50,565 nt of DNA from Clostridiaceae bacterium (lineage in GTDB: Bacteria; Bacillota; Clostridia; Saccharofermentanales; Saccharofermentanaceae). Each line of letters begins with the position of its first letter. Within the stretch, counting starts at the first letter, position 1. This document shows, one piece after another, positions 22,429 to 29,774 of the stretch. Made by a program: the position numbers and the translations under genes. The notes under the pieces were generated by a model that saw only the letters and a list, made by a program, of their open reading frames with translations, did not search any database and was not told the DNA's origin. The stretch is taken from NCBI GenBank assembly GCA_012718915.1, contig JAAYBI010000095.1, forward strand, positions 1 through 50,565. The letters run 5' to 3'.

Positions 22429-22497
22429 GATAATTTCACATATTTATCTGTTCCGGATTCTTTATTGATTCTGGTATTCGAAAAGTCTGACAATGTA

Positions 22498-22506
22498 TGA
22501 TATAAT
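22498..22506 (+). promoter_or_regulatory. SRP RNA promoter, extended -10
   Basis: TGATATAAT (TATAAT at 22501-22506 with TGn extension), about 15 bases before the first paired base of the SRP RNA. The -35 region (TTCGAA around 22477) is weak. Confidence 0.6.
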
Positions 22507-22521
22507 CGTTTCACGCTTTTC

Positions 22522-22661
22522 GCCCCGTCCGGTCTGCGGTCGGCTTCGGGTCTCGTGCGATGTGACCCGCGAACCCTGTCAGGTCCGGAAGGAAGCAGCA
22601 GTAAGCGGTCAATCACAGGTGCCGCGAGGGTGCCTGATGTCGACCGCGGACCCGACGGGGC
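22522..22661 (+). ncRNA. ffs: signal recognition particle RNA
   Basis: The conserved domain IV hairpin is unmistakable: GTCAGGTCCGGAAGGAAGCA (about 22577-22596) facing the symmetric-loop partner ending in CAGGTGCCGCGAGGGTGCCTG. The ends pair as a long rod, GCCCCGTC (from 22522) with GACGGGGC (to 22661), giving about 140 nucleotides. Binds Ffh for co-translational targeting. The exact ends are set by pairing and could differ by a few bases. Its position just before dnaX matches many Firmicutes. Confidence 0.92.
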
Positions 22662-22689
22662 GAATTTACTTTTATCGGAGGTTTTTGGC

Positions 22690-27312: not shown

Positions 27313-27573
27313 CTATCTGAGTCTGATTTGAAAACGATCGAACGACACCTTCTCTGTAAATTGATCAGAGAAAAAGATTGTCTGTCTGAATGCTGCAAAT
27401 TCGTGCGTATTTTTTGAGAGCCAAAGTGGAATCGGAACCTCTAGTGTGTGGCACAACAAGACCAGAGCGCCTTCTAACTCCTTCACAAAAGTATCTTTAT
27501 TCTCCTCGTATACAATTTCCGCCTGTCGGACCATAAGATTGGCCTTAAAGGTCTTACCCTCAAGCTTCACCAT
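27313..27573 (-). CDS. small conserved-looking protein upstream of mazG, unknown
   Basis: 86 residues, mixed alpha/beta composition: an N-terminal VKLEGKTFKANLMVRQAEIVYE, an acidic middle, then LEVPIPLWLSKNTHEFAAFRQTIFF and a short basic C-terminus. No motif I recognise, no signal peptide or membrane helix. GGAGG five bases before the ATG at 27573 sets the start; the longer frame to 27606 has none. Only 15 bases separate it from mazG on the same strand, so it heads the mazG-rqcP-divIC operon. A TATAAT on the minus strand (27614-27619) could be its -10, without a clear -35. Confidence 0.75.
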   Translation of the reverse strand: MVKLEGKTFKANLMVRQAEIVYEENKDTFVKELEGALVLLCHTLEVPIPLWLSKNTHEFAAFRQTIFFSDQFTEKVSFDRFQIRLR

Positions 27574-27710
27574 TTTTGCCTCCTTTGCCACAATTCTGCC
27601 GACCATCTGTTACATTATATTCATTCCAAATGTACGAGACCGAAACATATGGTTGGTATTATCTAAGTGTATCGAGCAGAAACTCCTTACTTCATAACAC
27701 CCTCCTTACA

Positions 27711-27743
27711 GATGCCGACGCCCCCCGTCGGTATCTTCTTTTT
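27711..27743 (+). terminator. terminator-like hairpin upstream of the metzincin gene
   Basis: GATGCCGACG (27711-27720) and CGTCGGTATC (27726-27735) pair over ten positions with one wobble around five C, followed by TTCTTTTT. No plus-strand gene precedes it within 2 kb, so it may terminate a short unknown transcript or attenuate the leader of the gene starting at 27830. Confidence 0.6.
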
Positions 27744-27829
27744 ATTATAAGCATATCCGGGCTGAAAGTGATATTATTAATTTGCGAGATTCTGTTTTAC
27801 TATCACTCAGCGCAAAGGAGCGATGACAG

Positions 27830-28741
27830 GTGTCGACAACGGACCGAGTAGATATACCGATTCGCTTAAGACCCAAGCAAACTCTGGAAATGCGATACCC
27901 GATTAAGTATCGCGACCCGAGCCGTGTTCCTGTGCAATTAATCATCAAAGGCAATGCTCTTCGTATTCGCTTTTTTGTGTCTTATTCAAAGGAGTTCATG
28001 CGCTGCTTTCCAGGCACCGACCTGACTTACGCCGATATTTTCGAGGCCGGAGTTCGTTCTAATTGGGCCGGCAAATTCAACATCGACTGGTTATTGGATG
28101 ACGGATATGAACTCGCCAAAGCAAAAGCGAGCTTCCGAGTCCTGACTGATGAAAACTTCCCCAAAAAAACCGACGTCACACCTCAATCCGCAGCAGTCCG
28201 GGTTGCCGTCGAATTTGTCCGAAAAGACAAACCGGAGGCGAAAGAGATTTACAATCAACATCGATTTATTAAAATTGTATTCTCAAAAAGCAAGAATATG
28301 CCTTCTCATGTCGTCAGTCCGATTTGGCGACGATTCTGGGGTGTTTTTTCGAACGGCCAACTTGAAGCACTGATGCTCAACTGGTCTGTGTTGCATCCCG
28401 GTAACATGTATATACAAAGAAACCTTTCGAGGCATTTATTCCAAAAGACAGGCGCACACGAAGTTGGCCACATTCTGGGGATCGGGGATGCCTATGCCGC
28501 CAGTTATCGCTTTTATTATGAGGCACCGGGTACAACCCATTATATGATGTCCCATAACCGCAAAGTACAGCCGCAAGAGATTGAAATGGCTGTTGCCGCT
28601 CATTTTTTTAATCAGATGCAATTTTTCCCGAGGCGTTTTATCCTCAAGACTTTCACGAACGGAATGTCGCGCTCATTGAGGCTAAAAATCAACCACTTAT
28701 CAAAATCTGATCGAAAACAATATCGTGTATCGAAAAATTAG
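27830..28741 (+). CDS. metzincin-like zinc metallopeptidase, unsecreted, unknown family
   Basis: 303 residues. HEVGHILGIGD (210-220) is an HExxHxxGxxD zinc site, the metzincin pattern with Asp as third ligand, as in snapalysins. A Met-turn candidate THYMMSHN (236-243) follows at about the expected distance. The N-terminal 150 residues are beta-rich (RIRFFVSYSKEFMRCF, ADIFEAGVRSNWAGKFNIDW) and I cannot name the domain. There is no signal peptide or transmembrane helix, so it is predicted to stay in the cytoplasm or leave by an unknown route. The basic C-terminus (about 263-303) is Arg/Lys-rich. Start is GTG with GGAG 9 bases upstream. Monocistronic. Confidence 0.75.
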   Translation: MSTTDRVDIPIRLRPKQTLEMRYPIKYRDPSRVPVQLIIKGNALRIRFFVSYSKEFMRCFPGTDLTYADIFEAGVRSNWAGKFNIDWLLDDGYELAKAKASFRVLTDENFPKKTDVTPQSAAVRVAVEFVRKDKPEAKEIYNQHRFIKIVFSKSKNMPSHVVSPIWRRFWGVFSNGQLEALMLNWSVLHPGNMYIQRNLSRHLFQKTGAHEVGHILGIGDAYAASYRFYYEAPGTTHYMMSHNRKVQPQEIEMAVAAHFFNQMQFFPRRFILKTFTNGMSRSLRLKINHLSKSDRKQYRVSKN

Positions 28742-28991
28742 CGCCCCGCAATTTTATCGCCGAAGTTTGATCTTTTGCATTGTCTTATATTGCTCTATGG
28801 CGATTCAAATGTGTCCGTGTTTTTTTAGCATCTAAATCGTGAACAAGTCGTAAATAGATGTCTTTTTCGCCACAATTCACCTGTTTTGTCAATGCTCTCT
28901 TGTTGTAGTGTTTTCGCTTTCGGGGTAAAATGATTGTACAAATCCCAGAAACGCGATACATCTTTGAACGGTGTGTCCAGAGGAGGTTCTT

Positions 28992-29774
28992 ATGAAGAAG
29001 TGTCCAGACTGCGGTATGGTTATCGCTAACCAAGCAATAAGATGCCCAAAATGCAAATATGATTTCACGGACGGTCAGGGTGCCGGTGCTGCGCAAGGTT
29101 CTGCTCCGACTTCCGGCTCTAAGGCTCCGGCGGCTGTTATGCCGATGATACTCGTGACCAAGGATAATGTAGATGAGCTTTACAATGAACTAAAGACCAA
29201 GATTATTAAGCGCAAGACGGAATTCGATCACTTTATTGATTTTCTCGAGAATCGGACATCTTGGATGACTGCTCCCGCCGCAATAGAGGGACCTCTGGCG
29301 CACGAGAAAGGTCTTGTCATTCATTCTGTCGGCGTTGCCTATCAGCTTCTCCGGATCAAGGAAAGCCTGATGCCTCAACTCGATGACGAGTCTGCGATTG
29401 TTATGGCTTTATTCCATGATGTTGGCAAAGTTGGTGTCGAAGGTAAGCCCCTCTATCTGGTCGAAGAGAAAATTACTACATCTGCTCTCGGACTCGGATT
29501 GGGAAGAAGCACAACGTCTTCCTCTTACATTATTAACCCCAAGCTTGTTCACATGAGTGTTGGCGTCAGAAGCCTCTTTCTTGTGTCCCAGTACATGTTA
29601 TTATCCGACGATGAGGCGCAGGCCATTTGCTATCAGAGTGATGGAGGACAGATTGAAGGCAAGCAGAATCCGTTGACCATGATCCTTGAGACTGCAAACA
29701 AATGGCAGACCAAGATCTATGAGAACGACGAGACCATTCGCCAGTATAATTTTTCTTCTACGGCTGCGAAGTAA
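28992..29774 (+). CDS. zinc-ribbon HD-domain protein
   Basis: 260 residues. An N-terminal zinc ribbon (CPDCG at 4-8 and CPKCKY at 19-24) is followed by a Gly/Ala/Ser linker (about 30-55) and an HD phosphohydrolase-like domain: His in VIHSVGVAYQLL (about 110) and HDVGKVG (about 140-146). HD domains hydrolyse phosphates of nucleotides or cyclic dinucleotides; the substrate here is unknown. The C-terminal half carries a Gly/Ser-rich stretch (LGLGLGRSTTSSS) and a helix. GAGGAGG precedes the ATG at 28992; the longer frame starting at 28971 spans that ribosome binding site. Monocistronic with a strong terminator. The 250 bases upstream hold no gene. Confidence 0.8.
   Translation: MKKCPDCGMVIANQAIRCPKCKYDFTDGQGAGAAQGSAPTSGSKAPAAVMPMILVTKDNVDELYNELKTKIIKRKTEFDHFIDFLENRTSWMTAPAAIEGPLAHEKGLVIHSVGVAYQLLRIKESLMPQLDDESAIVMALFHDVGKVGVEGKPLYLVEEKITTSALGLGLGRSTTSSSYIINPKLVHMSVGVRSLFLVSQYMLLSDDEAQAICYQSDGGQIEGKQNPLTMILETANKWQTKIYENDETIRQYNFSSTAAK

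What the first reader, a model, noticed from the sequence alone, without database searches (positions are those of the whole stretch)
27830..28741. Unsecreted metzincin-like protease with HExxHxxGxxD
H210-E211, H214 and D220 plus a Met-turn candidate at 238-241 fit metzincins, which are almost always secreted. This protein has no signal peptide, a novel beta-rich N-terminus and a basic C-terminus.
Basis: partly seen in the sequence, partly recalled or inferred. Interest (0 to 1): 0.6.

Follow-up and report, generated by a model that had tools for sequence, protein, structure and literature searches.

The report
Leaderless metzincin, kin of Rhs toxins
This gene encodes a zinc-protease-like enzyme of a fold that is normally secreted, but this version has no export signal, is kept as a single copy across many relatives in one order of Clostridia, and its nearest relatives outside that order are mostly the tips of large secreted Rhs toxin-like proteins.

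Summary
The 303-aa ORF has HExxHxxGxxD at 210-220, a Met-turn candidate (M240) and no signal peptide; an in-frame stop lies two codons before the GTG start. In 45 homologues the motif, D220 and M240 are invariant. The AlphaFold model (pLDDT 88) matches only metzincins among its best solved-structure hits: adamalysin Z 8.6, snapalysin Z 8.0 over 121 of 132 residues. The window protein reaches no Pfam or NCBIfam cut-off. One correction: the 'novel beta-rich N-terminus' is the metzincin N-terminal subdomain, not an extra domain. The leaderless family is a single-copy clade in 81 of 188 genomes of one clostridial order, under strong purifying selection. Its closest relatives outside the order are mostly C-terminal domains of Rhs-repeat proteins (profile E 1e-32). 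The standalone clade differs by lacking an export signal and by a basic, often amphipathic C-terminal helix. In four related genera it sits in an overlapping or near-overlapping operon with a two-helix membrane protein. Best reading: a new leaderless metzincin family acting in the cytosol, probably at the inner membrane face; activity and substrate are unknown. In passing I found an undescribed candidate small RNA about 90 nt upstream.

The parts
27830..28741 (+). CDS of the leaderless metzincin, 303 aa, GTG start
   Evidence: 81 of 188 genomes of the order encode a relative
27814..27820 (+). Shine-Dalgarno-like AAAGGAG, 9 nt before the GTG; in-frame TGA at 27824-27826 closes the frame upstream
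   Evidence: read directly
27932..28429 (+). residues 35-200: metzincin N-terminal subdomain (strands 35-40, 43-52, 122-131, 147-151, 192-195; helix 67-79), including the clade-specific stretch S163-R167-W170-G171
   Evidence: AlphaFold model, structural alignments spanning model 35-263, shared with Rhs C-terminal domains
28457..28489 (+). HEVGHILGIGD, residues 210-220: putative zinc ligands H210, H214, D220 and catalytic E211, on the end of helix 201-215
   Evidence: invariant in 45 homologues and in 7 Rhs domains; aligned with snapalysin HETGHVLGLPD
28541..28552 (+). Met-turn candidate YMMS, residues 238-241; M240 invariant
28571..28630 (+). residues 248-267: C-terminal helix of the metzincin core and the invariant F266-P267 that ends the shared domain
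28643..28735 (+). residues 272-302: basic C-terminal helix present in the standalone clade and absent from the Rhs domains
   Evidence: Rhs domains end soon after the core

Best explanation
The gene encodes a metzincin-type zinc endopeptidase that stays inside the cell. It is the founder-type sequence of an unnamed, leaderless family restricted, as far as sampled, to one order of Clostridia. H210, H214 and D220 would bind zinc, E211 would activate the water, and M240 would form the Met-turn. It has no propeptide and no conserved cysteine, so it is not a classical secreted zymogen. The basic C-terminal helix, amphipathic in many lineages, most likely holds the enzyme at the inner face of the membrane or docks it on a partner. 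There it would make limited cuts in a specific protein. Shown: motif, invariance, fold match, absence of export signal, vertical single-copy inheritance, purifying selection. Inferred: zinc binding, proteolysis, membrane-face location, substrate specificity.
For: Invariant HExGHxxGxxDAY and M240 in 45 homologues. Model pLDDT 87.9, pTM 0.83. Foldseek's best PDB hits are metzincins though with E values above 0.001, and the alignments re-scored by VIA give Z 8.6 adamalysin II-type and Z 8.0 for snapalysin 1kuh (121 of 132 residues, 3.2 A), model range 35-263. No export signal: upstream in-frame stop and low N-terminal hydropathy in the family. Single match per genome in nearly all of 81 positive genomes, 13 of 30 genera. 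One clade in a maximum-likelihood tree, 99/99 support. pN 0.08 against pS 0.74. C-terminal tail net positive in the family (median +7), with amphipathic 18-mers beating shuffles at p < 0.1 in 23 of 43. In four genera of family f2 it overlaps or nearly abuts (-38 to +24 nt) a membrane protein with two predicted long N-terminal helices.
Against: No experiment. Zinc geometry was not measured in the model. The structural Z values (8 to 8.6) are only just above the level the tool warns can be a common arrangement; it is the agreement of motif, invariance and uniformly metzincin hits that carries the claim. For the window protein itself the amphipathic signal is weak (p 0.22). The membrane partner is absent from the window's family (0 of 115 genomes) and is present in relatives that lack the protease, so it is not an obligate partner. 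Export without a signal peptide cannot be excluded.
Confidence: 0.68

Rival explanations
1. It is a secreted protease or effector that leaves the cell by a route that needs no signal peptide, and acts outside like its Rhs relatives.
For: The nearest relatives outside the order are mostly C-terminal domains of Rhs-core proteins, one of which starts with a hydrophobic leader in a 3844-aa protein. Almost all well-known bacterial metzincins are secreted (general knowledge).
Against: No secretion genes, delivery domain or immunity-like gene lie next to it; the neighbours are housekeeping genes that differ between families. A single vertically kept copy under purifying selection is unlike polymorphic effectors. 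No match in the phage or plasmid collections.
Confidence: 0.12
2. It is a catalytically idle zincin scaffold or a zinc-binding regulator rather than a protease.
For: Metallopeptidase-fold proteins without activity are known (PMC11266112, by its abstract); no activity has been shown here.
Against: The general base E211 and all putative ligands are invariant in every one of the 45 homologues, which is not expected if catalysis were lost.
Confidence: 0.12
3. It is a housekeeping protease that works on nucleic-acid-bound proteins, the basic tail binding DNA or RNA; in the window's family the gene stands beside dnaX-ybaB-recR.
For: Basic tail; neighbourhood of dnaX, ybaB and recR in several genera of family f1.
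Against: That neighbourhood is not kept in the other families, where neighbours are a ribokinase and thrS, aroE, or other genes. The tail is amphipathic in many lineages.
Confidence: 0.08

Closest known systems
C-terminal metalloprotease domains of Rhs-core proteins in other Clostridia (L080-L097; not named in Pfam or NCBIfam at cut-off)
   Same: Homologous over residues 31-268, profile-profile probability 99.9, E 1.1e-32, including the N-terminal strands, NWS-PG stretch, HExGHxxGxxDxY, Met-turn and the closing QxF(P)
   Different: They are tails of secreted-type Rhs proteins (TIGR03696 core found in L081, L082, L085 and L092); they lack the S163-R167-W170-G171 signature and the basic C-terminal helix; the standalone clade separates from them with 99/99 support
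Snapalysin, MEROPS family M7
   Same: HExxHxxGxxD with Asp as third ligand, D-x-Y, short metzincin; Z 8.0 over 121 of 132 residues; profile match E 1.6e-4 over the motif
   Different: Secreted enzyme of Streptomyces; Met-turn about 10 residues after the Asp (PMC3890501) against 20 here; extra helices before the active site here; Pfam and NCBIfam cut-offs not met
Immune inhibitor A, MEROPS family M6
   Same: HExxHxxGxxD motif; all 45 homologues match NCBIfam TIGR03296 weakly (best 9e-7); one relative (L036) passes Pfam M6 narrowly, 23.2 against 22 bits
   Different: The window protein has no Pfam M6 match at E 5 and reaches 20.5 of 110.8 bits for TIGR03296; M6 enzymes are large secreted proteins (general knowledge)
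Archaemetzincin (M54) and DUF1025 minimal zincins (PF06262, M94)
   Same: Precedents for zincins that are not obviously secreted; PF06262 has HExxHxxGxxD and Acel_2062 has no signal peptide and is presumed intracellular (PMC3890501)
   Different: Archaemetzincin has a His third ligand and four conserved cysteines (PMC3427221); PF06262 lacks the Met-turn and is far smaller

Membership tests
Metzincins, clan MA(M) | HExxHxxGxx(H or D) zinc-binding motif | tested here: met
   residues 210-220, invariant in 45 homologues
Metzincins, clan MA(M) | Met-turn after the third ligand | tested here: met
   M240 invariant in 45 standalone members and the equivalent M in 7 Rhs domains; turn and short helix at 239-242 in the model. 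The packing under the zinc was not measured
Metzincins, clan MA(M) | two-subdomain metzincin fold | tested here: met
   metzincins fill the top structural matches, Z up to 8.6, model 35-263
Metzincins, clan MA(M) | bound catalytic zinc and peptidase activity | not testable with these tools
   needs purified protein
M7 snapalysin | curated sequence-profile score (PF02031, NF033628) | tested here: not met
   window protein has no PF02031 match at E 5 and no NF033628 match; best listed relative 19.9 of 25 bits
M6 immune inhibitor A | curated sequence-profile score (PF05547, TIGR03296) | tested here: not met
   window protein: none for PF05547, 20.5 of 110.8 bits for TIGR03296. One distant relative, L036, passes PF05547 by 1.2 bits
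Polymorphic (Rhs) toxin | toxin domain at the C-terminus of an Rhs or other delivery protein | tested here: not met
   standalone 303-aa ORF closed upstream by a stop
Polymorphic (Rhs) toxin | adjacent immunity gene | tested here: not met
   no conserved small partner gene in the window's family; the neighbours are an HD-domain protein with its own ribosome site, 110-290 nt away in most genomes, and housekeeping genes
Archaemetzincin M54 | HExxHxxGxxH plus four conserved cysteines | tested here: not met
   third ligand position is Asp in all 45; no invariant cysteine

The most novel reading that the evidence does not exclude
A toxin-type metalloprotease module of Rhs proteins was taken into the cell early in the history of this clostridial order, lost its export route, gained a basic membrane-binding tail, and became a vertically inherited cytosolic housekeeping or regulatory protease (or the reverse: the toxins were recruited from the cellular enzyme).
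Probability: 0.3. Interest if true: 0.62.

Novelty: new variant of a known kind. Interest (0 to 1): 0.47.

Why it matters
Metzincins are among the best studied protease folds, yet nearly all the familiar ones work outside the cell. A leaderless metzincin family conserved as a single copy across an order of gut and digester Clostridia, and homologous over its full domain to secreted Rhs tips, would link toxin protease domains with cellular housekeeping and gives a compact target for finding an intracellular substrate. It also gives the Rhs metalloprotease domain, which no Pfam or NCBIfam model reached at cut-off here, a well-populated reference family.

Tried and rejected
Named families: Pfam, NCBIfam, PHROGs and PADLOC give no match at cut-off for the window protein. 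Weak hits to a Tudor domain, PdxR, ClpX-like chaperone and PDC-S19 cover unrelated stretches and were dismissed. Phage and plasmid collections and viral contigs gave no relative, so a mobile-element origin of this copy is not supported. The membrane protein of family f2 was tested as an obligate partner and rejected: it occurs in 54 of 188 genomes, including genera without the protease, and in no genome of the window's family except one weak partial match. Its model best resembles the cytosolic domain of rhomboid YqgP (Z 7.9) and restriction-endonuclease-like folds, below the level that can be trusted; the analogy to YqgP's metal-sensing adaptor role (PMC7231995) stays a lead only. Operon with the downstream HD gene: rejected as an operon, since the gap is usually 110-290 nt and in 14 genomes of genus g4 that lack the protease the HD gene is still there. 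The first-look idea of a separate novel N-terminal domain was rejected. Apparent in-frame TGA codons in some homologues lie at the C-terminal end of the match, where the relatives' ORFs stop, and are no sign of recoding.

Full report
What is there. The window is one contig (C88) of a 2.2-Mb clostridial genome, 96% complete.

Is it more than chance. A relative is encoded in 55 of 115 genomes of the same family and 81 of 188 genomes of the order, in 13 of 30 genera. I fetched diverse loci, extracted the ORFs and aligned 45 (A1). Invariant residues are P34, W79, S163, R167, W170, G171, N184, W185, G191, H210, E211, G213, H214, G217, D220, A221, Y222, A224, Y226, R227, M240, E250, A257, F266 and P267. 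Between the window gene and its sister in the same genus, pS is 0.74 and pN 0.08 (dS is saturated, so the ratio is only a rough indication). The gene is functional and under purifying selection.

Fold. AlphaFold2 on A1 gives pLDDT 87.9 and pTM 0.83. The helix 201-215 carries HExxH, a short turn and helix lies at 239-242, and a C-terminal helix follows at 248-260: the metzincin order of elements. Foldseek's PDB matches are metzincins from rank 1 on (ADAM10, ADAMTS, snake-venom enzymes), though its own E values are weak (0.008 at best). Re-alignment gives Z 8.6 for an adamalysin-type enzyme, 8.3 for MMP-11 and PAPP-A2, and 8.0 for snapalysin 1kuh with 121 of its 132 residues at 3.2 A; rows span model residues 35-263. 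The tool warns that Z under 8 can be a common arrangement, so I rest the claim on three things together: motif, invariance and uniform identity of the hits. The beta-rich N-terminus is thus the metzincin N-terminal subdomain. Coordinates of the model were not available, so ligand distances were not measured.

Sequence relations. The window protein reaches no Pfam or NCBIfam cut-off. Over the whole alignment the weak matches are all metzincins: M6, M7, M10, M12, DUF4953. One distant relative, L036, passes Pfam M6 by 1.2 bits. The A1 profile finds snapalysin as the best solved sequence, E 1.6e-4, on the stretch AHExGHxxGLxDxY. Across the class, 17 of 391 genomes match, 5 of them from the order itself. 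The strongest outside the order are long ORFs. L081, L082, L085 and L092 carry the Rhs core TIGR03696 in front of the metalloprotease domain. Profile-profile comparison of A1 with seven such domains gives probability 99.9 and E 1.1e-32 over residues 31-268, and in those seven domains H, E, G, H, G, D, Y and M of the active site are invariant too. One other relative, L084, is standalone with an N-terminal Sel1-like stretch (my reading) beside pnp, rpsO and nad genes. Across the phylum only one further weak match was seen in 398 genomes. The published survey of polymorphic toxins describes several Rhs-linked metallopeptidase toxin families, Tox-MPTase1-5, said to be distantly related to Wss1 (PMC3482391); whether the domain here equals one of them was not resolved, but no Pfam model hit it at cut-off.

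Standalone against Rhs. A maximum-likelihood tree puts all 45 standalone members on one side of a branch with 99/99 support. Some Rhs rows have long branches and the root is unknown, so the direction of exchange is open. Two features mark the standalone clade: the helical stretch with S163, R167, W170 and G171, and a C-terminal tail after P267. The tail is net positive (median +7 in the last 25 residues), forms helix 272-302 in the model, and its best 18-residue stretch is more amphipathic than shuffles at p < 0.1 in 23 of 43 members, though not in the window protein (p 0.22). The Rhs domains end soon after the core. No member shows a signal peptide; the highest N-terminal hydropathy belongs to a likely mis-extended start.

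Context. In the window's family the gene lies by dnaX-ybaB-recR, divIC and mazG-type genes and is followed by a zinc-ribbon HD-domain protein (PF01966) in most genera, usually after 110-290 nt, and the two need not be co-transcribed. In genus g4 many genomes have the HD gene without the protease, so the protease is dispensable there. In family f2 it overlaps or nearly abuts (-38 to +24 nt) a membrane protein with two long N-terminal helices in genera g7, g8, g9 and g12, and overlaps a ribokinase gene in g11. The membrane protein is absent from the window's family and found without the protease elsewhere, so it supports a membrane-side location in f2 only.

Mechanism. The most likely picture is a leaderless zinc endopeptidase, held at the inner membrane face or on a partner by its basic tail, making limited cuts. 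The catalytic chemistry is inferred from the metzincin family; the location is inferred from the missing leader, the tail and the f2 operon. Activity, substrate and regulation are unknown.

Novelty. This is a new leaderless metzincin family, not a new fold or chemistry. Non-secreted zincins have precedents: archaemetzincin (PMC3427221) and the DUF1025 minimal zincins (PMC3890501). The new parts are its conservation across an order, its invariant clade signature, and its full-length homology to Rhs metalloprotease domains.

In passing. A conserved noncoding element about 90 nt upstream looks like a small RNA of about 75 nt that ends in an intrinsic terminator. It is described under Noticed in passing and is independent of the protease.

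Noticed in passing
window 27669-27743 (+), core block 27684-27707, terminator stem 27710-27736: Candidate small RNA, no Rfam family. The block TCCTTACTTCATAACACCCTCCTT is nearly invariant and is followed by an intrinsic terminator; an extended -10-like TGGTAnnAT precedes it. One copy each in 73 of 188 order genomes, all in genera g1-g4 of the window's family, none for the reversed control, with or without the protease gene. In the terminator stem 8 of 11 pairs change on both sides, 40 cells against 7.6 expected in shuffles.
   Followed up: partly
window 27684-27707 and 28980-28997: The small RNA's core block is the complement of a whole ribosome site: AAGGAGG, 5 nt, ATGAAG. In the window's genome the only other site within 3 mismatches is the start of the neighbouring HD-domain gene, with a computed duplex of -21.8 kcal/mol; the energy is weaker in most other genomes, some without the RNA. 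Whether this is targeting or chance is open.
   Followed up: partly
L155:1502-2599 and L160:4338-5423: Directly downstream of two Rhs-type genes with the metalloprotease domain lies a predicted lipoprotein with repeated 'KYGYID/KWGFIN' motifs (WG-repeat-like, my reading), in two unrelated genomes: a candidate immunity or inhibitor protein.
   Followed up: no
L045:7026-7832 (and A2): Unnamed two-helix membrane protein family of families f2 and f4 (54 of 188 genomes) with a soluble domain whose model weakly resembles the cytosolic domain of rhomboid YqgP, Z 7.9.
   Followed up: partly
L158:3846-4943: A second standalone relative outside the order (genome G321): 366 aa, Sel1-like N-terminal part followed by the metalloprotease domain, no leader, next to pnp, rpsO and nad genes.
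   Followed up: no
window 22474-22667 (+): Large bacterial signal recognition particle RNA, RF01854, 95.7 bits, just upstream of dnaX.
   Followed up: no
window 27313-27606 (-): Unnamed 97-aa protein with no Pfam match, conserved in 13 loci of the family next to the small RNA.
   Followed up: no
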